IMG/VR virus record: IMGVR_UViG_3300047300_000855
Coordinates: 1-20,836 of that record
Reading direction: 5' to 3' (one strand)
Length of the DNA stretch: 20,836 bases
Source: a virus
The notes beneath the pieces were generated by a model, which saw only the letters and a program-made list of their open reading frames with translations, did no database searches and was not told the DNA's origin. Made by a program: the position numbers and the translations under genes. Of the stretch, positions 1 to 18,771 are shown in pieces; position 1 is the stretch's first letter; every line of letters begins with the position of its first letter.

Positions 1-2635
1 AAATTACTGTCCCTAATTCCTTAGCAGTTGCTCGAACATTCTCTAGAGCCTGTGGGTTTAACGCCTTAGCATCTAGTCTATCAATCATTTCTAGTAGCTT
101 AGAGCTTGCACCAGCTGAAGCTTCATAGTCTCCAGCAAAGTCAAGATTTTCAGCATCTTCTGCCTTTTTAAGTGCTTCCGCCAAGCCAGCTACTCCAAGA
201 TCCTGCTTAAGTCTGGCTAGGACTGTGCGGTACTTTCCTTTAGCATCTCGAGGTTGGTTAACTCCAGAGATGTATTTAGCAGGTTCTCCAGTAGTCGGAT
301 CGATTTCGCCTTCTGGAGCATTAGGCTTTCCCTTATTGGCTTTTACTTCTTCGGCAGCCTTGATCTCTTCCTCGGTTTGCTTATCGGCTTCAGCCTTAGC
401 ATCCTTTAGTTTCTTTAGGTCAGAGTCAGAGATCGTTTCTGCTTTTGGGGCACCAGCCACCACCGCCTCACCTGCGGCAGCAGTAATAGACGCACGCATA
501 GATGCTAGTTGCTCAGCTGCTTCCATGGATTCTGCATTTTTCCAAGTACTAGGGATTAACGCTTCCTGCTTAAGCTTACGAGCCTGCTTAATAATGTGCT
601 TACGGACAGCACGACGTTCAGTGGCCTTAGCCCGTCCATATGCCTGGATAGCATTCTTAAGGTCTTCTACATCGCGAATCGGGTAAGCTCCATCTGGCAT
701 AGCCTTACCCTCTTTAGCTAGGGCATCGCGCTCTTCTTGCGAGATCTTAGCTAATTCAGCAACAGCCGCAGCAACTAGGGCCTGCTGCTGAAGTTCAGCG
801 GCCTGGGCTTCCAGTAAGTTGCGTCTTGCTTCTTCTGCTCTAACCTTTAAGTTAGGAGCGGATGCTGCAAGCTCGCCTAATAGATCAGCTTTTGTTGCCA
901 GGGTGTGGACAGCCTGGCTCTTCATTAGTGCCATATAGCTGGCACCAGCAGCAACTAGGGCCATGATCTTACCTGATGCAACCATTGCGCGTGCTGTCGG
1001 GAATCCTGGGACATTTACCTGGCAGATAGCAACTAGTTCTAGCGATCCATTGATTGGACGCCAGTCACCTGAAGGAGCAGATGCACGTAGTGCACGGATT
1101 TGCATCTCCTCTAGGTTAGGACGTAGGGATCCAGCGCACCAGATGCCGTATTCGTCTTCACCTACATGGATGTCTGCCACTGCAGATGCAGTGTCGTCAT
1201 AGTGTCTAGCTGCTGACACTGCGTCTGCATTTAGAGGAGCGTGCCCGCCCGCTAATGTCAACTGTCCGACAGCAATGTCGGTACCATTGTCTGTACGGAC
1301 AACACCAGTGTGAAAGTACGCGTAGTTGCTACGTGAGCGTGGTGGCTTAGTTGCACGTGGGAGCCCGATGTGGTTAACATTCCAAGCAGCAATGTGGCCA
1401 TAGACTCTACCGCTAGGGTCAACAGTAAGTGGGGTAGCACGGGTAAGCTTAGGGTTCTCGAACCAGTCGGTAGGAGGTGTCATCGGGATCTCGTTGTCTA
1501 GGAATCCAGATGCTAGCATCGGCTCCATATCAGCGAAGTCGACCATAGACTCCTCATAGACGCCATCTTCTGGGGTCACGTTTTCCTCCTGGTCCCCGTT
1601 TTCTTGCAGTACAATAGAGCATTCTTGAAATGCAGGCTTAGCTACAATTGTAGCAGCCATTATGCGAGCCTTATTGATGGTCAGTTTATCCTTACCCATG
1701 ACATCTGCATCTTCTGCATTTTCTGGCTTAGGGGCCTTATCTTCTCTAGCTTCGAACTGGTCTAGATCCACTGATACCCCACGTAAAAATCCGTGACGCA
1801 CTAGTCTCTCGGCTTCACGCCCGTAAGGTCCATTATCAAATACTCCATGAGCATTACCTAGACCGCCGTCTATGCGCTCAATAGAGTCAATGCGGCCAAC
1901 AACTACAGAACCATCATGGCCAGCACCAGTTTTGATCTGCCATAGTAGTGGTAGGGGTAGGTCTCTAATCGAGATAGCTCCCTCTTCAAACTTTCTGCCA
2001 TCGCCAGACTCAATGCCCTCTGGTGCGATCATTGGAATGTGGAAAGCTGCTCCAGAGGTGGTGGTTGCTGCAGAAGCAACTAGGCCCATCTTGTTTTTAG
2101 CATCGGCTGCTCTAGCAGATAGCATTGCCTTCTGAAGTATGGCCTGCTCGAAGGCGCTCTGTGACTCGTACAGTGAGTTAAACGCTTTTCTATTTTTATG
2201 CCCTGGGTTCAGTTTGCTACCTGTATATACTCCAGTAGCATCCTTGTGGCGGAGCTGGCAGTAGCCCTTTGCGCGAGGGCCCATGTACTTCGAGAGCTGA
2301 CGCACGCAGCGAGTCCAGTCACCAGGAGTGCCCCAGCGGATTTTAGCGGCACCCTTACCATGGGTCCAGTAGCGTCTTAGTTCTTCTGCATTACCGCGAT
2401 TACGATCTAGCCCGCCTGCAGCGGTTAGTGCGTCGAACTCATCATCGGCACATTTAGATAACTCGGCAAGTGCAGCAGCTATATCATCGGCTACAGCCCA
2501 CGAGTCATCGTAGATATCATCATCGCTATTTAGGATATCCTCGATAGGCATAAGGAGGTCCTCATTGGTGACCTTTGTAGGTTCACCAATATTTTCTCCC
2601 CAGACCTGCTCCATAAGAAACTCGTTGTTATCCAT
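1..2635 (-). CDS. Capsid maturation (prohead) protease, 3'-truncated at window edge
   Basis: An open frame of 878 codons reads from ATG 2635 to the left edge with no stop, so the C-terminus is missing. Residues 72-139 are an RWGxPGDW domain shared with the upstream gene. Residues about 200-340 resemble the HK97-type prohead serine protease of actinophages: LPLPLLWQ, then GHDGSVVVGRI with candidate catalytic His240, then GVSVDLD with candidate Ser288, then a TIVAKPAF segment. A second conserved block follows (TPLTVDPSGRVYGHIAAW, HYDDT, SGDWRPINGSLELV), as in the actinophage two-part capsid protease. The rest is Ala/Lys/Glu-rich and probably helical, like a scaffold, with a QPRDAKGKY motif at about 794. 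The expected role is cleavage of scaffold and head proteins during maturation. The start overlaps the previous gene by 8 bases, with no clear Shine-Dalgarno, so translational coupling is likely. The protease call is from remembered family motifs; the catalytic residues are inferred. Confidence 0.85.
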   Translation of the reverse strand, partial: MDNNEFLMEQVWGENIGEPTKVTNEDLLMPIEDILNSDDDIYDDSWAVADDIAAALAELSKCADDEFDALTAAGGLDRNRGNAEELRRYWTHGKGAAKIRWGTPGDWTRCVRQLSKYMGPRAKGYCQLRHKDATGVYTGSKLNPGHKNRKAFNSLYESQSAFEQAILQKAMLSARAADAKNKMGLVASAATTTSGAAFHIPMIAPEGIESGDGRKFEEGAISIRDLPLPLLWQIKTGAGHDGSVVVGRIDSIERIDGGLGNAHGVFDNGPYGREAERLVRHGFLRGVSVDLDQFEAREDKAPKPENAEDADVMGKDKLTINKARIMAATIVAKPAFQECSIVLQENGDQEENVTPEDGVYEESMVDFADMEPMLASGFLDNEIPMTPPTDWFENPKLTRATPLTVDPSGRVYGHIAAWNVNHIGLPRATKPPRSRSNYAYFHTGVVRTDNGTDIAVGQLTLAGGHAPLNADAVSAARHYDDTASAVADIHVGEDEYGIWCAGSLRPNLEEMQIRALRASAPSGDWRPINGSLELVAICQVNVPGFPTARAMVASGKIMALVAAGASYMALMKSQAVHTLATKADLLGELAASAPNLKVRAEEARRNLLEAQAAELQQQALVAAAVAELAKISQEERDALAKEGKAMPDGAYPIRDVEDLKNAIQAYGRAKATERRAVRKHIIKQARKLKQEALIPSTWKNAESMEAAEQLASMRASITAAAGEAVVAGAPKAETISDSDLKKLKDAKAEADKQTEEEIKAAEEVKANKGKPNAPEGEIDPTTGEPAKYISGVNQPRDAKGKYRTVLARLKQDLGVAGLAEALKKAEDAENLDFAGDYEASAGASSKLLEMIDRLDAKALNPQALENVRATAKELGTVI
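2219..2422 (-). repeat. RWGxPGDW domain, copy A (N-terminal in the protease)
   Basis: This stretch encodes residues 72-139 of the protease gene, from AAGGLDRNRGNAEELRRYW to the end of the LRHKDATGVYTG block. It is a protein-level paralogue of 2661..2864: I count 54 identical residues of 68 with no gap, while the codons have diverged widely. Conserved features include WxHGxGAAKIRWG, PGDW, a Cys in RCV and one in GYCQLRHK. The domain is known from actinophage head proteins; its function is unknown to me. Confidence 0.85.
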
Positions 2636-4823
2636 TAGCACGATCTTTCTTTGCATGAGTGGATGTATAGAAGCCTAGAGCTTCCTTGTGACGTAATTGG
2701 CAGTAACCCTTAGCGCGAGGACCTAGGTGCTTGTATAGATGCTTGACGCAACGCTTCCAGTCCCCTGGCTGCCCCCAGCGGATCTTAGCTGCTCCTTCTC
2801 CGTGTACCCAGTAGCGGCGAAGCTTCTCGGCATTGCCACGGTTGCGGTCTAGACCGCCAGCGGCTAGTAGCGGCTCTACGACTCGATCCCAAAATAGTCC
2901 AAAATCGTATGCCGAAGCAGCCACGGCAGGAGAGGCAGCATCTGCTTCCTTAAGGACATCGTTTAAGACTTCCTGGTCATCTAGTTCAACTACAGGTGGA
3001 GGAGTCGCAGACTTGAGATCCATCAGCACCTGGTCATTGCGCTGCCATTTAGCAGATTCCCGTGTGTATGCCACAGTCTCGGTCGACTGAGAGCTAGCAG
3101 GGACCAGGGCGACTATGTCCATAACAGCAGATAGGTCATCAGGCGAGACTATAGCTAAATATTTAGGAGTAACATCAGACTCTTTCGGGGAAGATATCTT
3201 TGTGCCCTCGCCAGCTGCAATAAGGCCAGATGCTCTAATCTCGCTATCCTTTAAGCCGTGTCGATCTTTAACGAACTTGCGATCGTATGCTTTTAGTCCA
3301 GAGAATCTTTTGCCAGACTTAGTGACACCAGAATCTGGCATCAACTTATAGTCTCTAGAGTTTTTATAATAGCCTGGAAGCCCGTTGATGAAGTCGTGAA
3401 TATCCTTAGTGGTCATCTTAGGCAGTGTGCCTGGGAGATGAGCTATCGGAGAGTTAATAGGGGTTCTTGGCTCGCCTAGAATTTTATCAAACTGAATTGG
3501 AGGTAGAGTGTCCTGAGCAGGGGACATAGATGGGCCATCAAATGATGACTCTGCCTCTGTGAACTTAGGGTCGACCGAGATAACCTTACCGCTATCTAGT
3601 CTGACTCGAACCTTACCGCTATTTGTGTCTATATCGGTAATTGTACCTGACCCGCGCTTCTGGTCTCCGCCAACTACAGTTCGGCTTCCGACCTTTACAA
3701 ACAGCCCCGAGGCGTCACGTGGCTGCGCCGAGGTGTTCTTAGAGCGCTCTTCAGGAGTGTAATTTCCGTCTGTAGCAGTAGGAGATGACCCAGCTGCAGT
3801 TATGACACGATCAATCATGTCAATATCTTCTTCTGCCAACCCATCAGCCATTAACCTAGACTCTTCTGGGTCAATCTCTTCAATTAGGACTGGCTGCATA
3901 GGGCGTTCCTGCATAAATGCAGAAATGATCACTGCAGACGACGGATCGATAATTACATGATCCTTGGCAATTAGGTCATACGGATCATCTAGGGCCGCAT
4001 CGTATGTGTAAACGTCACCATCTACGTGACCTAAAGTATCCCATCCGCAGTCGTCCCAAATTGATACCGACCCGTCGATATCGATCTTATATAGGCGATC
4101 AATACCTGATCCATCTAGACGGATTCTAGCTAAAAACTCTGGGCCTACCGCCAAATCCAATTCATGCGCCAACTTGAATGGGTTGACGTCTGCGTCATAG
4201 CCGTTCTCGTAGCCGTATAGTTCTATATCATCTTGGTACCCAGGTAGGACATAGCCAGTAGCAGTAACCGAGCTCTTATTGTCTCGCTCTACGATTGCAC
4301 GTGACCAGCGCCAAGCTGCGTCGCCTCCCCAGAGTGCCCACGCAATCCTGCCATTAGACGGGAAGTTGTCTTCGCCAGGTGCCCATCCTTTGCCCTTTTT
4401 GTCGACTTCATGGCGAGGAAAATACTTGGCAATATGGCGAATCTTTTCTATACCAATTTGACCGCCCTTGGCGAGGGTTCGTGCGGTATTCATACCTACA
4501 GGAGTTCCACCACGCTTGTGCTCTTTGTGCCAATCCAAAGCTCTTTGCGCTTCTTCTTGAACTCCAGCTGGGATGGTGTACATTCTATCCCCACCCGATG
4601 CGATAATCGCGCTATCAAGCGGAGCTAGAGCTGCTTTAGCTAGCTCTACAGTAGTATCGTCAACTACAACACCTTCAGCAGTGACGGTGTCAGAGCTAAG
4701 TAGGGCTAAAACTTCTACCCTAGACAGGTCTTTAACCATATTAAGCGTAGTGTCAATGACTACCTGCTTATCATTGCTAGCGAAAAATGCTAGTTCACCA
4801 TTAGAGCCTAGGAACTTGAACAT
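2628..4823 (-). CDS. Phage head-region structural protein with C-terminal RWGxPGDW domain
   Basis: 731 residues; no enzymatic function recognised. Residues about 82-180 form a domain with IPAGVQEEAQRALDWHKEH, a basic segment and WALWGGDAAWRWS, a type seen in other phage structural proteins. A QPRDASGLF motif at 367-375 leads into a small beta-rich KOW/SH3-like stretch (about 376-425). Residues about 540-630 include TPKYLAIVSPDDLSAV and ATPPPVVELDD, which I associate with actinophage minor head proteins. Residues 654-721 are an RWGxPGDW domain that is nearly duplicated at the N-terminus of the next gene. The start ATG overlaps the upstream stop as TAATG, so the genes are probably coupled. A structural role is inferred from position between portal and capsid protease and from the shared domains. 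Confidence 0.75.
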   Translation of the reverse strand: MFKFLGSNGELAFFASNDKQVVIDTTLNMVKDLSRVEVLALLSSDTVTAEGVVVDDTTVELAKAALAPLDSAIIASGGDRMYTIPAGVQEEAQRALDWHKEHKRGGTPVGMNTARTLAKGGQIGIEKIRHIAKYFPRHEVDKKGKGWAPGEDNFPSNGRIAWALWGGDAAWRWSRAIVERDNKSSVTATGYVLPGYQDDIELYGYENGYDADVNPFKLAHELDLAVGPEFLARIRLDGSGIDRLYKIDIDGSVSIWDDCGWDTLGHVDGDVYTYDAALDDPYDLIAKDHVIIDPSSAVIISAFMQERPMQPVLIEEIDPEESRLMADGLAEEDIDMIDRVITAAGSSPTATDGNYTPEERSKNTSAQPRDASGLFVKVGSRTVVGGDQKRGSGTITDIDTNSGKVRVRLDSGKVISVDPKFTEAESSFDGPSMSPAQDTLPPIQFDKILGEPRTPINSPIAHLPGTLPKMTTKDIHDFINGLPGYYKNSRDYKLMPDSGVTKSGKRFSGLKAYDRKFVKDRHGLKDSEIRASGLIAAGEGTKISSPKESDVTPKYLAIVSPDDLSAVMDIVALVPASSQSTETVAYTRESAKWQRNDQVLMDLKSATPPPVVELDDQEVLNDVLKEADAASPAVAASAYDFGLFWDRVVEPLLAAGGLDRNRGNAEKLRRYWVHGEGAAKIRWGQPGDWKRCVKHLYKHLGPRAKGYCQLRHKEALGFYTSTHAKKDRANG
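2661..2864 (-). repeat. RWGxPGDW domain, copy B (C-terminal in the 731-residue protein)
   Basis: Encodes residues 654-721 of the 731-residue protein and pairs with copy A at 2219..2422. Only ten residues follow it before the stop, so the two copies sit back to back across the gene boundary. Conserved landmarks are GGLDRNRGNAE, RRYW, GAAKIRWG, PGDW and GPRAKGYCQLRHK. Confidence 0.85.
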
Positions 4824-5756: not shown

Positions 5757-7826
5757 CTACTTGCTTCCAGCTGGAACCATCTTCAGCATTCCTCGATCTA
5801 GTACAACAATGTAGCTTTCACGTCTATCTCCGTTAGGGTTAACTACTTCAATTCCTTGGAATCCAAATATAGCTGCCAAAATAGTTAAGTCATACTCCAC
5901 TGAGCCGTTGAGGCCCATCTTGTGAGCCAGGCGGGAAATTTCAGCTCTTATCTCTGCTTCAGTTGCGTCTGGAGATACCTCATTAAGGACAACTTCTCTT
6001 AGTAGATCCCTATATAACTCGCTGTGGAATCGCTCAATGTTGAATCCAGCATTTGCAGAATTAGGGTCAAAGAGATTTCCAGTCCCGCTGCTGGAGTACA
6101 CGTATACCTTTGCATCAGGCTTTACCGACATAGCTATGGCAGTGTTTCCAAAAGTATATGTCGTTGATTCCTTTGTCGAAGCATACTGTCCATCACCATA
6201 GATACCGTACCCGTACCATGGCATATCTAAGGTTCGGAATTCATCATGCAGCTGATTAGCTGAAACTTGATGTCCATCTCGCTTAATGGCGCTCACTGCT
6301 CGGAAAATCTTGTACTTATCGTTAGGGATATGGTCAACAGTTTCTGGCTTATTAGATGTAAACCCGAAGAATCTGGCTAGCTTATGTACCCTACTTGACC
6401 CATATTTACCACCCTTTGAGTACTCAGAGCTCTCTGGACCGTTGTATTCAGGGATATTTTGAGCATCATCATCTGCCCAGACTAGGTCTAGGAAGTTGAA
6501 GAACTTTTTGTGGGACTCGGTCTTGTAGGTGTCACGCCACTTTTTGTTGATCTGAGCCTTAGTTAATCCCTTCGACTCGAGCAATGCTAAGAACTCTGGG
6601 CTAGCATCTCCAGTCAGAAGATACTTAGCATATTGCTCAGCGAAGTTCTCCGATGGACTCTGATCACCATACTGACTAGCCCCATCAGAAACTTTGAACT
6701 TCTTCATATCTGCAACTAGTGATGATCTACCACTGTCCTTGTCCGATCCCCAGTGTTTGTACATCATCAGGTGCCCAGTCTCGTGGACAATGATGTGCTC
6801 GTACGCTGAGTTTAAGGATTTGACATCAGTAGAGTACCAATCTGGATTGAAAGATACATCATTTGCGATAGCAGTAATCTTCTTTGGATATAAGAATACT
6901 GACCCATCGGCAGCTGGGTGCGCTGTAAACGCAGCGTCATTCTCGCCTATCTGCGACGCCAATGATTTAGGTAGCTCTGCGCCATTACCTAGCGCGTGGA
7001 TTGTTATTTTATCCTTATTGAACCTATTAGTTCTGGCCTTCCTAATACCGCCAAGGATTGCAACCAGCTCTTCTTCAGAGGCAGCTGGAGCGTAGAGCGG
7101 ACCGCTAGGAGCGTCGGTGTCCATGTGAACCAGGATGTCAGCTTTATCTGCATCCGAGTATAGTCGGATATGTGCCGTAGCAGGCGAGCTGATCATCTTT
7201 TTAGCTTTAGCAATTGCCTTAGCCTTGGCTCTAAAAGTTGCTTCCGCAGAGTGCACGTTTAGGTCTTTATAGGCTGCTTCAAACTCTGCTTGATAGCGGT
7301 CGATAATCTCTAGTGCACCTTCAGCCTTCCAATCTCCGCCCAAGGCTGAGAAGGAAATTCTTGGAATAACAGATCTAATCTCTTTGGCTAGTTCATCTCT
7401 GACCTGATCGAATGTCTTCGGTGACGAACCAGATCTATTTTTATTGTGAAGAATGCCAGCCACTCTAGCCACCTCTAGTGGTGACATAAATCTGTCTGCC
7501 TTGACTAAGTCCAATGGTGCCGTGTACGCATTGCTGGAGTCAAACGAGTTATAGTGGAACTCCAATAGAGCCTTAAGTGCGTCAACGTAGTCTGACGTAC
7601 TACCATCAGCTCTGGCACCGCGGACATCCGCTACTAGCTGCTCTAACTTATCAAAGTCATGATCAGCTGGGATAGTCGAGTAGATATACGACTCTATAGC
7701 CTTTAGGTCATGCCAATTAGGGTCGATTGGTGTGGTTCTAGGTCGACCAGGGCCAGGGCCAGCGTTCTTTTTTAGTGAACGAATTCCAGATAAGTCGAAC
7801 TTCTTGTTAGCAAGGCTAGGGGCCAC
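5757..7826 (-). CDS. Zincin metalloprotease motif plus probable ADP-ribosyltransferase; likely -1 frameshift extension of the 912-aa head protein
   Basis: The frame is 689 codons from GTG 7826, but this GTG has no ribosome-binding site. The frame is open upstream to 7929 with no other ATG, GTG or TTG, so it is probably translated by -1 frameshifting from the upstream gene, entering at ATA 7886 and adding 709 residues. Numbering from the GTG, residues 1-50 are a Pro/Gly-rich linker. A zinc-binding HETGH motif lies at 348-352, with ENFAE (393-397) a likely source of the third ligand, as in zincin peptidases and toxins. Residues about 503-689 resemble phage ADP-ribosyltransferases: KIFRAV with candidate NAD-binding Arg509, YGYGIYGDGQYAST at about 536-549, and a terminal GFQGIEVV...YIVVLDRG segment. 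The likely role is a head-associated effector modifying host proteins. The enzyme classes are inferred from motifs; the zincin could instead be degenerate. Confidence 0.75.
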   Translation of the reverse strand: MAPSLANKKFDLSGIRSLKKNAGPGPGRPRTTPIDPNWHDLKAIESYIYSTIPADHDFDKLEQLVADVRGARADGSTSDYVDALKALLEFHYNSFDSSNAYTAPLDLVKADRFMSPLEVARVAGILHNKNRSGSSPKTFDQVRDELAKEIRSVIPRISFSALGGDWKAEGALEIIDRYQAEFEAAYKDLNVHSAEATFRAKAKAIAKAKKMISSPATAHIRLYSDADKADILVHMDTDAPSGPLYAPAASEEELVAILGGIRKARTNRFNKDKITIHALGNGAELPKSLASQIGENDAAFTAHPAADGSVFLYPKKITAIANDVSFNPDWYSTDVKSLNSAYEHIIVHETGHLMMYKHWGSDKDSGRSSLVADMKKFKVSDGASQYGDQSPSENFAEQYAKYLLTGDASPEFLALLESKGLTKAQINKKWRDTYKTESHKKFFNFLDLVWADDDAQNIPEYNGPESSEYSKGGKYGSSRVHKLARFFGFTSNKPETVDHIPNDKYKIFRAVSAIKRDGHQVSANQLHDEFRTLDMPWYGYGIYGDGQYASTKESTTYTFGNTAIAMSVKPDAKVYVYSSSGTGNLFDPNSANAGFNIERFHSELYRDLLREVVLNEVSPDATEAEIRAEISRLAHKMGLNGSVEYDLTILAAIFGFQGIEVVNPNGDRRESYIVVLDRGMLKMVPAGSK

Positions 7827-7863
7827 CTTAGGAGTAGGGGCTGAAGCTGGTGTCCCATCTTGT

Positions 7864-7892
7864 GGGCCAACTGCAGCCCTATCTATTTTGGG
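7864..7892 (-). promoter_or_regulatory. Predicted -1 programmed ribosomal frameshift signal (CCCAAAA + stem-loop)
   Basis: On the minus strand the last two codons of the 912-residue gene are CCA AAA followed by TAG, preceded by C. This forms a C CCA AAA heptamer (7892..7886) in the exact X XXY YYZ phase. Six bases later comes GGGCTGCAGTTGGCCC (7879..7864), which can form a five-pair stem including one G-U, with a six-base loop. Slipping one base back gives CCC AAA and then the ATA GAT AGG frame, which is open into the metalloprotease/ART region. The predicted fusion is 1621 residues. The geometry matches known -1 sites; use in vivo is inference. Confidence 0.75.
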
Positions 7893-10621
7893 AGGCGGGA
7901 TTCCCCTAGATCTACAATCTCTAGCTGCTCATCGCCGCTCTCATCTAGGTAGATAACTGCCCAAGCTTCAGTGCCGTCATCAGCCGTCACCTTCTGAGCC
8001 TCTACGAATGTTCCCAGATAATCACCGTCTGCGGTATACCACGCATCACCAGCAGCTAGGTCGCCAATGTTGCTCTCTGCAGGAGTTTCTTCAGCTGCAG
8101 GCTCCGATAGGTCAGTGCCCTGAGGGGTAGCAGGAGTTGAATCTGCCTGAGAGTCAGAACCATCAGTGCCGTCAGAACCTAGGTATGGCTGTGCGGCATT
8201 CTGGTTGGTAGTGTTTAGAGGTGCTCCAGCAGGAACATCCTGGTTGTCATCATCCTGCTTCTGTGAATCACCAAAGTCAAGAACGATGTTTCGTGCAGAG
8301 CGCAGGTCGTCATTCTTAAGTGACGCCTTGTAGTCTGTAGGGGCCGAGTCCTTATCGTGCATGCTTAGCTCTGTATCTAGGTCATCCCCTAGGACATCCA
8401 TATACTTAGCACGTAGCACTCGCTGAGTTGTATCAGCAAACTTGACTGATACGATATCGTCATAGCCCTTCTTAGGAGCTCTCAGGGCTACTACCTCACC
8501 GATAGACCATTCGCCGATATTGTTCCAGTAGCGAACCTTGTCTCCAACCTTAAGGATGGTCTTACCATCCTTAGATGCCCATGGTCTGCGCTGGATATCA
8601 CGCAGGTCTAGGCCGTCTGACATGATTGCCTTTTCAATGTTATTAGCCAGAGGAGCTAACTTGCGACCCTGCGGGGTGCCATTGAACTTAGATTTAATCT
8701 GGTCACGAAGTGTGTTGATTAGGAGGTTGCGTGACTCCTCGTTATCAGGGAGGCGGCCCAATAGCTGAACCATGCGCTCCTGGAAGAGCTCGGCATCATC
8801 TGCTTCGATAGCTTCCCATGCGCTGCCGACAAAGCTCTGAAGCTTCGTTCCTCTAGACTTTCCTTCAGCCATATTTAGCTTCTCGGCTCGTCCATTTAGA
8901 TACTTACGAACTACTTCTTCAGGAGTCAGCAACTTGAAGTTAGAGTCATCTAGCATGTCGTCAGTGATCGTGGTACCGTCAGCCTTCTTACCACGGTAAT
9001 ACATCAAACGCTTAGCTAGAGTGGACTTATCTCCAAAGTAGTGCTCCTTTTCGCGGGTCCACTTTGCTCCTGGCTTACCAGGTACACGATCCCCGAGCAT
9101 AATGTCACGGAAGACAGTAACTCCGTTACCTTCACCATAGATTGCAGCGAATGAGTCCTTGTAGTCGTAGTGATAGAACGACTGAGTCTCTCCAGTTGTC
9201 TCATCGGTGAAGCTGTACTTCTCCATGTACTGGTTACCGTGAGTCTTAGAGACTGCTACCTCGTACTTGTAGTTCTTGCCATCCTTGTCGGTGAACGATC
9301 CACGTTCAAGGATAATATTTCCAGCTTTATCTACCTTAGCCTGAGGGTTCTGCTCGAGTAAGGCATTGTAGATGGCGTTAGGGTCCTCTACCTTTACCTT
9401 CTTACCCTTATTGTCTCTACCGAATACTGGATTACCATTCTCGTCGAATAGCTGTGCAATAGTAGTCTCTCGTAGTTGCTCCTGAGGAATAATGTTACGA
9501 GGAATATCCTTACCATCATCCTGTCTACCCTTAGGGATAGTCGGTAGGGTTGCCTTAGGCTTAGTTGTCTTAGTCGCCTTAGCTGCTGGCTTAGTTACAG
9601 CCTTAGGTGTAGCAGGTACAGCAGGTGCAGCAGGAGTTGCAGGTGCAGCAGGTGCAGCAGGAGTTGCAGGTGCCTTAGTGGCGGCAGGCTTAGCCTGAGG
9701 CGGAACATCGATACGCGAGATTTTAGCGTGGTCTGGTATTCCATTAGGGAATGCTCCAGCAGCATTTACTGGACCACGGCCAGTGCCATCATCTACAAAT
9801 AGGTCCCAGGTGCCGCTCAGTGCACGCTTCTTTGTGGAAATAACCTTCATAGGTCTATTCTGTAGAACTACAAAATCTCCTGGCTGAAGGTCAGCAAGAC
9901 CCACCTGAGAAAGTTTGACTGACGGCTTAGTTGGAGGAGTCGATGCCTTGTCAACAAGCTGGTCTACTGAAGGGACATCTCCACCATAGAAAGCATCAGC
10001 ATATGCGTCCGATACAGCTGAATCCACGGGATCACCAGAGACATCTACACCGTCAACGCTGTTTACAATGTCAGAAACCTCTGCGCCCTGAGCAACCTCC
10101 ATTGCAGGTGGGAGCTTAGCTAGAGGCTCCTGGTCACGCTCGGCACGCAGTGACTTGTCTTCTTCTGGTGATAGTCCGTTAGTGGCTAGGTCAATGTCTA
10201 GAGCATCTGCAGGCTTAGGGTCCATAGACTCTAGTGACTGAGGCTGGTTTGCTACATCTGCTGGAAGGCTGTGACGTAGATCTGGGTCGATACCCTTGCT
10301 CTTCAAGAAGTTCTTGTCTAGAGTAGCTCCAGTGAATAGCTCGCCGTTCTTCGAGTTTACAGTTAGTACGGTATTTGGCTGGATGCCATAGTGCTCATAC
10401 CCACTGCCTACCAGCATACGGATCTGGCCTGGCTTGTCAGTACCACCGATAGCCTTACCGCGAATGTTAACATTTCGTCCACCAAGCTTAAGGCCAGCGA
10501 ATAGTCGAGCACCCGTGGTGACCCATCGGCCATACTTGTCACGAGGCTGAAGAGCGACTCGGGCTCTACGGGCAGCTGCCGAGTTACCGTCAGCTATTAG
10601 TGGAAGATTGTCATCAAACAT
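7883..10621 (-). CDS. Minor head protein (912 aa) with SH3-like segments and Ala/Pro linker
   Basis: A 912-residue, modular protein. The N-terminus carries QPRDKYGRW at 25-33, a motif shared with two other head proteins here. A beta-rich stretch ADLQPGDFVVLQNRPMKV sits at about 240-290, and an Ala/Pro/Thr linker at about 311-345 is encoded by a short tandem repeat. A large central region is probably alpha/beta. The segment GKTILKVGDKVRYW...GEVVAL is an SH3-like module of a kind common in actinophage minor capsid proteins. The C-terminal 130 residues are acidic and disordered, ending in another small beta module (AAGDAWYTADGDYLGTF). An AAGGA ribosome-binding site six bases before ATG 10621 supports the start. 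The gene ends on a frameshift signal that would fuse it to the downstream enzyme frame. No MuF-type catalytic core is recognised, so the structural role is inferred from context. Confidence 0.75.
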   Translation of the reverse strand: MFDDNLPLIADGNSAAARRARVALQPRDKYGRWVTTGARLFAGLKLGGRNVNIRGKAIGGTDKPGQIRMLVGSGYEHYGIQPNTVLTVNSKNGELFTGATLDKNFLKSKGIDPDLRHSLPADVANQPQSLESMDPKPADALDIDLATNGLSPEEDKSLRAERDQEPLAKLPPAMEVAQGAEVSDIVNSVDGVDVSGDPVDSAVSDAYADAFYGGDVPSVDQLVDKASTPPTKPSVKLSQVGLADLQPGDFVVLQNRPMKVISTKKRALSGTWDLFVDDGTGRGPVNAAGAFPNGIPDHAKISRIDVPPQAKPAATKAPATPAAPAAPATPAAPAVPATPKAVTKPAAKATKTTKPKATLPTIPKGRQDDGKDIPRNIIPQEQLRETTIAQLFDENGNPVFGRDNKGKKVKVEDPNAIYNALLEQNPQAKVDKAGNIILERGSFTDKDGKNYKYEVAVSKTHGNQYMEKYSFTDETTGETQSFYHYDYKDSFAAIYGEGNGVTVFRDIMLGDRVPGKPGAKWTREKEHYFGDKSTLAKRLMYYRGKKADGTTITDDMLDDSNFKLLTPEEVVRKYLNGRAEKLNMAEGKSRGTKLQSFVGSAWEAIEADDAELFQERMVQLLGRLPDNEESRNLLINTLRDQIKSKFNGTPQGRKLAPLANNIEKAIMSDGLDLRDIQRRPWASKDGKTILKVGDKVRYWNNIGEWSIGEVVALRAPKKGYDDIVSVKFADTTQRVLRAKYMDVLGDDLDTELSMHDKDSAPTDYKASLKNDDLRSARNIVLDFGDSQKQDDDNQDVPAGAPLNTTNQNAAQPYLGSDGTDGSDSQADSTPATPQGTDLSEPAAEETPAESNIGDLAAGDAWYTADGDYLGTFVEAQKVTADDGTEAWAVIYLDESGDEQLEIVDLGESRLPK
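9611..9673 (-). repeat. Tandem 27-base repeat encoding the Ala/Pro/Thr linker
   Basis: A 22-base core occurs exactly at 9621-9642 and again at 9648-9669, giving a 27-base period and nearly two full copies, with a degenerate partial copy before it. It encodes alternating APATPAAPA-type residues, a flexible linker between the N-terminal and central parts of the 912-residue protein. Such repeats can change length by slippage while keeping frame. Confidence 0.8.
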
Positions 10622-11897: not shown

Positions 11898-12353
11898 TTA
11901 GCGGACTCCTAAATGTGCCTTGATCTGCCAGTTCCACTTTTCAAGGGTGTCGATACGTCCAGCCAGATAATCAGCTAGGCCCTGGCGGTTAGCTTCACTA
12001 GCTGCGGCAAACATGCCGTAGTGACATTCGATTAGGTGGGAGTTGATCCTTAGCGCAGAGTTAAAAAGCTCTGCAATCGACGCCCCATCAATCCTCTCCT
12101 CGTTGATGTGAGACAGCTCTAGAAAGTCCGTCAATAGGTATGGAGCTGCTACGCCCATTTTTCTGATGTTCTCAGCTAGGTCGTCAATCGATGAGTCATA
12201 GTCTTCATACAGCATTGCGAAAAATGCATGCTGCTCACTGAAGTTAGGTCCCATCACGTTCCAGTGGTATCCATGTAGGAGGAATTTAGCTACTACAACA
12301 TCAGCTAATACCTCTGCCAACCGCTGAGATAGTTCTACTTTAGAGTGTTCCAT
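11898..12353 (-). CDS. dps: Dps-family ferritin-like DNA-protection protein
   Basis: 151 residues, about the normal length for a Dps. Dps dodecamers oxidise iron with hydrogen peroxide and store it, and many bind DNA. The ferroxidase signature is clear: HGYHWNVMGPNF with His30, His42 in SEQHAFFAMLYEDYD, and DDLAENI with Asp57/58 and Glu61. The C-terminus lacks an obvious Lys-rich DNA-binding tail, though the end (WQIKAHLGVR) is mildly basic. AGGGG in the end of the portal gene can serve as ribosome-binding site. Its position in the head operon, directly after the portal, is unusual for a stress protein and suggests late expression, possibly with the virion or the packaged DNA. The family call is firm; the reason for its location is inference. 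Confidence 0.9.
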   Translation of the reverse strand: MEHSKVELSQRLAEVLADVVVAKFLLHGYHWNVMGPNFSEQHAFFAMLYEDYDSSIDDLAENIRKMGVAAPYLLTDFLELSHINEERIDGASIAELFNSALRINSHLIECHYGMFAAASEANRQGLADYLAGRIDTLEKWNWQIKAHLGVR

Positions 12354-16889: not shown

Positions 16890-17213
16890 CTAAAGCAGGG
16901 GCTCAATCTTGGCCAGGAGATCCGCTTTAGTGAGTGCTCCAGTGTGTCTAAAGGCCTGCTCGCGATCTTTAAATAGGATCATCGTAGGAGTTCCCGTGAC
17001 GCCATACGCAGCAGCAAGTGTAGTCTCAACTGACGCGTCCAGCAGGAATACATTTAGTTGATCATCCTTGTCTCGATTAATAATTTCGAGCACTGGCTTC
17101 ATCATCTTGCATGGGCCACACCATGGTGTGTAGAACTCAACTAGAACTGGCTTGCGGATTGAGCCTTCAAGTACGCCTTCATCGAATGTGTTCTGTGTAA
17201 CTTCTCTTAACAT
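16890..17213 (-). CDS. trxA: Thioredoxin
   Basis: 107 residues, the usual length of a single-domain thioredoxin. The active site is WCGPC at 31-35 within VLVEFYTPWCGPCKMMKPVL, and the cis-proline is Pro76 in GVTGTPT, so all catalytic features are intact. It acts as a cytoplasmic dithiol reductant, here most likely handing electrons from the adjacent thioredoxin reductase to the peroxiredoxin. Ribonucleotide reductase or host proteins are other possible partners. AAGGAT lies five to six bases before ATG 17213, and only eight bases separate it from the reductase stop, so it is clearly in the same operon. It is the last gene before the terminator. Confidence 0.95.
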   Translation of the reverse strand: MLREVTQNTFDEGVLEGSIRKPVLVEFYTPWCGPCKMMKPVLEIINRDKDDQLNVFLLDASVETTLAAAYGVTGTPTMILFKDREQAFRHTGALTKADLLAKIEPLL

Positions 17214-17221
17214 TTTTATCC

Positions 17222-18142
17222 TTACAAACTATTTAGGTAGTGCTCTGCATCTAGTGCAGCTACACAACCAGAGCCAGCGGCCGTGATGGCTTGGCGGTAA
17301 GTTGGGTCAATCACATCTCCGCATGCGAATACGCCAGAGATGTTTGTCTTAGACGAACGTCCCTGAACCTTGATGAACTTATTCTCGTCAAGTTCTAGTT
17401 GATCGGCAACTAGTTCGCTTCTTGGGTCTGATCCGATTGCAATGAATAGTCCGTGAATTGGTAGCTCGCTTACGGAGCCATCAGCTGTGTTGACTAGGGT
17501 CACTGCAGTTAGTGAGTCAGTACCGTGAATAGTCGAGACTGCTTGATTCCACAGAATCTCGATCTTCGGGTTGTCAAAGATACGCTGTTGCATTGCCTTA
17601 GAGGCTTTGAAGGTATCCTTGCGGTGAATGACGTAGACCTTGGTGGCGAACTTGGTGAGGAAGTCAGCTTCCTCTAACGCGGAGTCACCTCCACCAACTA
17701 CGGCAACAATCTTATCACGGAAGAAGAAACCGTCGCAAGTAGCACACCAGCTAACGCCGTGTCCTGAAAGTTCTAGCTCCCTGTCCAAGCCGAGCGTTCG
17801 ATATTGAGCACCTGTAGAAATGATAACGCTCTTGGTCTCAAAGGTTCCACCCTCTGCGGTCTTAACAATCTTCACGTCTCCGCTTAGATCGAGTTCGACA
17901 ACGTCGTCATACAGAATCTCTGTACCAAATCGCTCGGCTTGTGCTTGGAGGTTAGCCATGAGTTCTGGACCCTGAATGCCTTCAGGAAAACCAGGGAAGT
18001 TCTCTACCTCGGTGGTCTTCATAAGTTCACCGCCAACAGCAATGCTGGATGCGATCAACAACGGCTTCAGTTGGGCTCGGGCTGCATAAATAGCAGCAGT
18101 AAACCCTGCAGGCCCAGAGCCTACAATGACTAGGTCATGCAT
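17222..18142 (-). CDS. trxB: Thioredoxin reductase (NADPH)
   Basis: 306 residues, normal for the low-molecular-weight bacterial enzyme that moves electrons from NADPH through FAD to thioredoxin. The FAD-binding GSGPAG lies at 8-13, the redox-active CATC at 133-136 in SWCATCDG, and the NADPH-binding GGGDSA at 150-155. An HRKDTFKAS segment replaces the usual HRRxxFRAS, keeping the basic residues for the NADPH phosphate. GVFACGDV near the end is the second FAD motif. Nothing is missing. Its ATG overlaps the peroxiredoxin stop as TAATG, so the two are translationally coupled, and thioredoxin follows eight bases later. Phages often carry thioredoxin or glutaredoxin, but a full reductase next to its peroxidase partner is less usual. 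Confidence 0.95.
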   Translation of the reverse strand: MHDLVIVGSGPAGFTAAIYAARAQLKPLLIASSIAVGGELMKTTEVENFPGFPEGIQGPELMANLQAQAERFGTEILYDDVVELDLSGDVKIVKTAEGGTFETKSVIISTGAQYRTLGLDRELELSGHGVSWCATCDGFFFRDKIVAVVGGGDSALEEADFLTKFATKVYVIHRKDTFKASKAMQQRIFDNPKIEILWNQAVSTIHGTDSLTAVTLVNTADGSVSELPIHGLFIAIGSDPRSELVADQLELDENKFIKVQGRSSKTNISGVFACGDVIDPTYRQAITAAGSGCVAALDAEHYLNSL

Positions 18143-18711
18143 TAGAGAGTCTCTCCACCGATCTCACGGTTACATGCTGTGAGTTCGCCAGTCTGCAATG
18201 CATCAAGAATGCGAAGAGTTTCCTTCGGGTTGCGTCCAGTATCCAAGTTATTCACCGAGATGTGCTGAATAGTGTTAGTTGGGTCAACAATAACTGTTGC
18301 ACGTAGCGCAACGCCTTCCTTGCTACGAACACCAACGGTGTCCACTAGGCCATTCGTGTACGAGTCAGTATCCTCATCCCAGGCTCCTCGGAAGGTATCA
18401 GCAAACATGATGCTTGTGATCTTACCTAGGTCTGGGTGAGCTTCCTTCCATGCAAGCTTGCAGAACTCATTGTCTGTAGAGCCCATCATCAAAATGGTGT
18501 TGCGTAGCAGGAACTCGGTGTTCAACTTATCGTATTCGATAATTTCAGTCGGGCAAACGAAGGTAAAGTCCTTCGGGTAGAACATGTAGATCTTCCACTG
18601 GGTAGGGAAAGACTTATCAGTAATTTCCTGAAAGTAGGTTCCATCATCAAGCGGGTCAGCGTAGACGCCAGTAACCTTGAAGTCTTCTACTTTATCGCCA
18701 ATAGTTAGCAT
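18142..18711 (-). CDS. ahpC: AhpC-type 2-Cys peroxiredoxin
   Basis: 189 residues from ATG 18711; reduces hydrogen peroxide, organic peroxides and peroxynitrite. The N-terminus MLTIGDKVEDFKV is the family start. The peroxidatic Cys53 lies in YPKDFTFVCPTEI, and the resolving Cys180 in GELTACNREIGG. The pattern near the C-terminus (RILDALQTGELTACN) is closest to actinobacterial AhpC, but only nine residues follow Cys180, shorter than in mycobacterial AhpC. I chose ATG 18711 because it matches the family start and has GAGAGGA upstream, though 12 bases away. An ATG at 18756 would add 15 mostly basic residues (MESFLRRPLRGRKSR). The gene is coupled to trxB, forming an NADPH-TrxB-Trx-AhpC chain. Confidence 0.93.
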   Translation of the reverse strand: MLTIGDKVEDFKVTGVYADPLDDGTYFQEITDKSFPTQWKIYMFYPKDFTFVCPTEIIEYDKLNTEFLLRNTILMMGSTDNEFCKLAWKEAHPDLGKITSIMFADTFRGAWDEDTDSYTNGLVDTVGVRSKEGVALRATVIVDPTNTIQHISVNNLDTGRNPKETLRILDALQTGELTACNREIGGETL

Positions 18712-18771
18712 GCGTGATTTCCGTCCTCTCAACGGTCGTCGTAAAAATGATTCCATACTAAGAAGCCTAAT

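What the first reader, a model, noticed from the sequence alone, without database searches (positions are those of the whole stretch)
7864..7892. Canonical -1 frameshift site fuses a minor head protein to a toxin-like enzyme frame
Seen directly: the 912-residue gene ends C CCA AAA TAG, an in-phase XXXYYYZ heptamer (CCCAAAA) right at the stop. Six bases later is a GGGCT/GGCCC stem-loop. The downstream frame is open in -1 from the heptamer onward, and its first possible start, GTG 7826, has no ribosome-binding site. Predicted products are 912 residues (most) and 1621 residues (fraction). Programmed -1 frameshifting is well known for phage tail assembly chaperones; using it to append an enzyme to a head protein would be different.
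Basis: partly seen in the sequence, partly recalled or inferred. Interest (0 to 1): 0.85.

Follow-up and report, generated by a model that had tools for sequence, protein, structure and literature searches.

The report
Phage frameshift adds enzymes to head-region protein
In a family of lake-type phages of actinobacteria, a conserved slip site makes a fraction of ribosomes change reading frame at the end of a predicted head protein and append a predicted protease plus ADP-ribosyltransferase, apparently to load only a few enzyme copies into each virus particle.

Summary
On the minus strand, the 912-codon ORF ends CTC CCA AAA TAG (heptamer CCCAAAA, 7886-7892). The -1 frame runs 711 codons without a conserved start. 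Eight relatives from other metagenomes (44-98% identity downstream) all keep CCCAAAATAGATAGGGCTG, the stop and the -1 relation. The codon before CCA changes amino acid (L, V, G, S) but always ends in C. Several relatives have no ATG/GTG/TTG for 171-396 nt of the -1 frame, which is nevertheless under strong purifying selection (dN/dS 0.01-0.1). The appended part is predicted to be a flexible linker, helical region, lethal-factor-like zincin (HETGH) and ADP-ribosyltransferase-like domain. In related actinophages the same slot between portal and protease holds one giant in-frame ORF with variable cargo, three of five sharing ORF1's N-terminal module. Best reading: a polyvalent head-associated effector dosed by -1 frameshifting. 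Virion location, efficiency and enzyme activity are inferred. In-frame MuF-VIP2 fusions are known; this gated form is a new variant.

The parts
7883..10621 (-). ORF1, 912 aa, zero frame: predicted head-associated protein of small beta modules and disordered linkers, ending LPK*
10253..10609 (-). N-terminal module of ORF1 (QPRDxxGRW) shared with giant in-frame proteins at the same locus of Pumpernickel, Mimi and DSL-LC01
   Evidence: E 1e-11, 1e-6, 7e-6; alignments
7886..7892 (-). slippery heptamer C CCA AAA
   Evidence: identical in 9 of 9
7883..7885 (-). zero-frame stop UAG directly after the heptamer
   Evidence: identical in 9 of 9
7838..7879 (-). extended stem-loop 6 nt downstream of the heptamer: outer stem GGGCUG/CAGCCC, variable inner stem
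5757..7892 (-). ORF2 in the -1 frame, 711 codons from the slip site; no conserved start codon
6468..7175 (-). predicted zincin metallopeptidase domain; HETGH at 6771-6785 and SExFAEQYAKY motif
   Evidence: invariant H370, E371, H374, E415, E419; fold resemblance
5778..6320 (-). ADP-ribosyltransferase-like C-terminal domain (Y-x-I-x-R ... GYGIYGDGQY ... GFQGIEV)
   Evidence: (match to GodonK gp67, E 5e-9)

Best explanation
A programmed -1 ribosomal frameshift at C_CCA_AAA, stimulated by an extended hairpin 6 nt downstream, makes a minority of ribosomes read past the UAG of a 912-aa predicted head-associated protein. They append a 711-aa module: flexible linker, helical region, lethal-factor-like zincin metallopeptidase and ADP-ribosyltransferase-like domain. 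The long 1621-aa form would be built into the procapsid through the shared N-terminal part at a low, fixed ratio to the short form, and the enzymes would enter the host with the DNA. The zincin may free the effector by processing. Shown by comparison: slip site, frame relation, hairpin, and selection on the start-less -1 frame. Inferred: efficiency, packaging, injection, enzyme activities.
For: Nine of nine assemblies from seven metagenomes keep CCCAAAATAGATAGGGCTG and the -1 relation at 44-98% aa identity of ORF2. The codon before CCA encodes L, V, G or S but always ends in C; CGC, CCA, AAA and TAG are invariant. The -1 frame has no ATG/GTG/TTG for 396 nt (L003), 315 (L010), 312 (L004) or 171 (L024), yet dN/dS over its first 60 codons is 0.01-0.11. 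Hairpin: fold z -1.5 to -3.5, same 6-nt spacer in all, one fully compensatory pair (G-C to U-A), pairing 93.8% versus at most 56% when slid. Gene context between portal and prohead protease. Related actinophages carry giant in-frame proteins in the same slot, with shared N-terminal module (Pumpernickel, Mimi, DSL-LC01), ART-like domain (GodonK), ART (Forza) or UvrD helicase (Mimi). Zincin fold: top PDB hits are lethal factor and PPEP-1; six BFVD hits at E<1e-3.
Against: No expression or proteomic data. PDB fold matches are weak (best E 0.045). The ART domain has no Pfam hit in these sequences and its classical motif is not invariant. ORF1's model is poor (pLDDT 55) and shows no MuF domain. The 6 outer base pairs never vary, so they carry no covariation signal. 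The SD-like stimulator upstream is not conserved.
Confidence: 0.88

Rival explanations
1. ORF2 is a separate gene, translated from its own or a non-canonical start, perhaps by coupling to ORF1 termination; the heptamer is incidental.
For: A GTG exists at 7826 in the window; an AUA codon overlaps the stop region; short overlaps are common in phages.
Against: GTG 7826 is absent from L003 and has no spaced SD; relatives lack ATG/GTG/TTG for 171-396 nt while that stretch is under strong purifying selection; a wobble C is kept through four different amino acids.
Confidence: 0.05
2. A real in-frame gene broken by a sequencing or assembly indel, or a decaying pseudogene.
For: Related actinophages carry one giant in-frame ORF in this slot.
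Against: Identical arrangement in nine assemblies from seven metagenomes; low dN/dS in the downstream frame.
Confidence: 0.01
3. The frameshift is real, but ORF2 is not a delivered effector: the long form serves assembly, for example the zincin processes head proteins and the ART-like domain is structural or degenerate.
For: Lethal-factor-like zincins in polyvalent proteins are proposed to process polypeptides (PMC5512222); the ART STS motif is not invariant.
Against: ART-like and ART cargo recurs in this slot in other phages; the C-terminal domain is the fastest-evolving part (55-67% nt identity versus 93-98% just after the junction in L011/L012), as expected for a host-facing part.
Confidence: 0.25

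Closest known systems
In-frame MuF-VIP2 ADP-ribosyltransferase fusions of Microbacterium phages Percival and Goodman (PMC7302621)
   Same: A head protein gene extended by an ART predicted to be in the virion
   Different: One continuous frame, so every copy carries the enzyme; here a -1 slip gates it, a zincin is added, and no MuF domain was detected
Polyvalent proteins of phages (PMC5512222)
   Same: Multi-domain injected proteins combining zincin metallopeptidase and ART
   Different: In that work they are single polypeptides and the word frameshift does not occur in the text
-1 frameshifting of major head protein of Lactobacillus phage A2; T7 gene 10A/10B (cited in PMC5009743)
   Same: -1 frameshift extends a capsid protein in a fraction of copies
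   Different: Those extend a major capsid protein; here a predicted minor component gains 711 aa with two enzyme domains
Tail assembly chaperone gpG/gpGT frameshift
   Same: Slippery heptamer at the end of a virion gene, conserved across relatives
   Different: Head region, stop directly after the slip, enzyme cargo
HIV Gag-Pol
   Same: Frameshift near the end of a structural ORF fuses an enzyme needed in lower amounts
   Different: Unrelated virus; analogy of logic only

Membership tests
Programmed -1 ribosomal frameshift | In-phase X_XXY_YYZ heptamer conserved in relatives | tested here: met
   9 of 9, with wobble C kept through amino-acid changes
Programmed -1 ribosomal frameshift | Downstream frame in -1, open, selected, without own start | tested here: met
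Programmed -1 ribosomal frameshift | Downstream structure at 5-9 nt spacing | tested here: met
   6-nt spacer in all folded sequences; one compensatory pair
Programmed -1 ribosomal frameshift | Fusion product made at measurable rate | not testable with these tools
   needs reporter assay or mass spectrometry
MuF-type minor head protein | MuF domain match | tested here: not met
   no Pfam or PHROG MuF hit in ORF1
Polyvalent protein | Several disparate enzyme domains in one polypeptide in virion gene context | tested here: inconclusive
   predicted zincin plus ART-like domain between portal and protease; depends on the frameshift and on both domain assignments, which are predictions
Lethal-factor-like zincin (M34-like) | HExxH plus FAE third-ligand motif and fold | tested here: inconclusive
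   motifs invariant in 9; fold matches weak in PDB (E 0.045), E<1e-3 in BFVD; no Pfam hit
ADP-ribosyltransferase | Conserved R, STS-type and E motif, fold | tested here: inconclusive
   R531, E638 and E682 invariant, STS variable; HMM match to GodonK gp67; no Pfam hit

The most novel reading that the evidence does not exclude
A Gag-Pol-like logic in a phage head: frameshifting fixes a small number of 1621-aa enzyme-bearing copies per virion among 912-aa copies, and the zincin then releases the ADP-ribosyltransferase inside the host at entry.
Probability: 0.35. Interest if true: 0.8.

Novelty: new variant of a known kind. Interest (0 to 1): 0.62.

Why it matters
It extends conserved phage frameshifting from tail chaperones and major capsid proteins to the dosing of predicted virion-carried effector enzymes. 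It gives a direct test of how phages limit enzyme copies in the head without spoiling assembly, and says annotators of actinophages should look for frameshifts behind portal-region ORFs.

Tried and rejected
UAG readthrough: the zero frame closes within about 36 codons in the window's near relative and earlier in L003, and is not conserved. Transcriptional slippage: only four A, too short by established knowledge. Own start at GTG 7826: not conserved. Short GGGCT/GGCCC stem: not in the minimum-energy fold. Upstream SD-like stimulator: present in about 6 of 8 but weak or absent in L005 and L010, inconclusive. INPHARED tblastn for ORF1 and ORF2: no match. GTDB genome scan: no relative. Two pattern hits (L019, L021) are unrelated chance matches. 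Heptamers at the ends of ORFs in the five annotated relatives: none. ORF1 structure prediction too poor to search.

Full report
What is there. On the minus strand ORF1 (7883-10621, 912 aa) ends CGC CTC CCA AAA TAG. The heptamer C_CCA_AAA lies at 7886-7892 and the stop at 7883-7885. In the -1 frame the sequence reads CCC AAA ATA GAT AGG GCT and stays open for 711 codons to 5757. Window proteins include portal (phrog_776), terminase, and prohead protease-like proteins, so the pair lies in the head gene block.

Is it chance or error? Eight relatives were fetched from IMG/VR (L006/L002, L003, L004, L005, L010, L011, L012, L024), with ORF2 identity of 44-98% to the window. The eight come from seven metagenomes, judging by their contig names. 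All nine sequences have CCCAAAATAGATAGGGCTG, the UAG and the -1 relation. The codon ahead of CCA encodes L, V, G or S but always ends in C, and CGC, CCA, AAA and TAG are the only invariant codons in the last twenty. In-phase heptamers of this kind occur at about 1 per 1,100 codons in the window.

Can ORF2 start by itself? The first ATG/GTG/TTG in the -1 frame is 396 nt downstream of the slip in L003, 315 in L010, 312 in L004 and 171 in L024. The window's GTG 7826 is not kept in L003. Still, the first 60 codons show dN/dS of 0.09 (window/L003), 0.01 (L004/L005), 0.11 (L011/L012, few changes) and 0.04 (L012/L024). A start-less stretch under that selection is most simply entered from upstream. 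Readthrough of UAG leads to an early stop.

The stimulator. After a 6-nt spacer, all sequences folded give an extended hairpin: an outer stem GGGCUG/CAGCCC and an inner stem that differs between lineages. Energies are -25 to -29 kcal/mol over about 70 nt, z -1.5 to -3.5. In alignment A6 one pair changes G-C to U-A, others change on one side, and 93.8% of cells pair versus at most 56.3% when slid. The invariant outer stem itself gives no covariation evidence, and the sample is small (7 distinct rows, about three lineages).

What is appended. AlphaFold2 gives pLDDT 75 for ORF2, with residues 1-57 disordered, then helices, then an alpha/beta domain with HETGH. PDB fold search returns lethal factor and PPEP-1 at E 0.045-0.5; BFVD returns six hits at E<1e-3, and further hits named lethal factor, metalloprotease and minor capsid protein. 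H370, E371, H374 and most of the SE-x-FAEQYAKY motif are invariant. The C-terminal domain matches GodonK gp67 at E 5e-9 (in a small database of 122 ORFs) around GxGxYGxGxY; ART is the likely identity, without a Pfam hit. ORF1's model is poor (pLDDT 55): small beta modules joined by disordered Pro/Ala-rich linkers.

Locus comparison. In Microbacterium phage Pumpernickel, Arthrobacter phage Mimi, Gordonia phages GodonK and Forza, and the lake metagenome genome DSL-LC01, the stretch between portal and protease holds a long ORF of 1017-3289 aa in one frame. ORF1's first 120 residues match the N-terminal parts of those of Pumpernickel, Mimi and DSL-LC01. Cargo differs: ART in Forza (Pfam E 7e-18), UvrD helicase in Mimi, a weak kinase-like match in Pumpernickel. 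None of the five has a heptamer at its ORF ends. So the slot looks like a cargo slot, and this clade gates the cargo by frameshifting.

Mechanism. Shown by comparison: slip site, frame relation, hairpin, selection. Inferred: a minority product, assembly through ORF1, delivery with DNA, zincin processing, host ADP-ribosylation. The fast evolution of the C-terminal domain fits a host-facing role.

Known and new. MuF-VIP2 in-frame fusions are described in PMC7302621. PRFect (PMC10274946) lists VIP2 ART and MuF-like genes among predictions that might be frameshifted. Polyvalent proteins with zincins and ARTs are described in PMC5512222, whose text does not contain 'frameshift'. Frameshifted major capsid proteins are known (A2, T7, cited in PMC5009743). 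I found no paper describing a conserved frameshift that adds protease and ART to a head-region protein, within a library that lacks most subscription journals. Hence: a new variant of a known kind.

Noticed in passing
reverse-complement positions 10288, 17112, 20581 of the window; also L003, L004, L005, L025, L026: A short motif Q(P/R/W)RDxxG(R/K/Q/L)(W/F/Y) recurs in separate head-region proteins of these phages; it could be a procapsid targeting or protease-related signal.
   Followed up: partly
window 2628-4823 and 2-2656 (minus): The protease-region protein is split into two overlapping ORFs in the window, and the same joint is seen in L006, but it is one long frame in L003, L004 and L005, with a repeated phrog_6439 module (AAGGLDRNRGNAE...RAKGYCQLRHK) near the joint.
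   Followed up: partly
L011 and L012, ORF2: Nucleotide identity is 93-98% just after the slip site but 55-67% in the C-terminal ART-like part, suggesting cargo exchange or rapid evolution.
   Followed up: partly
window 16890-18756 (minus): Thioredoxin-like, thioredoxin reductase-like and peroxiredoxin-like genes lie in a row upstream of the head genes (judged by eye from the translations).
   Followed up: no
window 11898-12353 (minus): A Dps/ferritin-like small protein (KFLLHGYHWNVMGPNF) is encoded directly after the portal gene and conserved in relatives (judged by eye).
   Followed up: no
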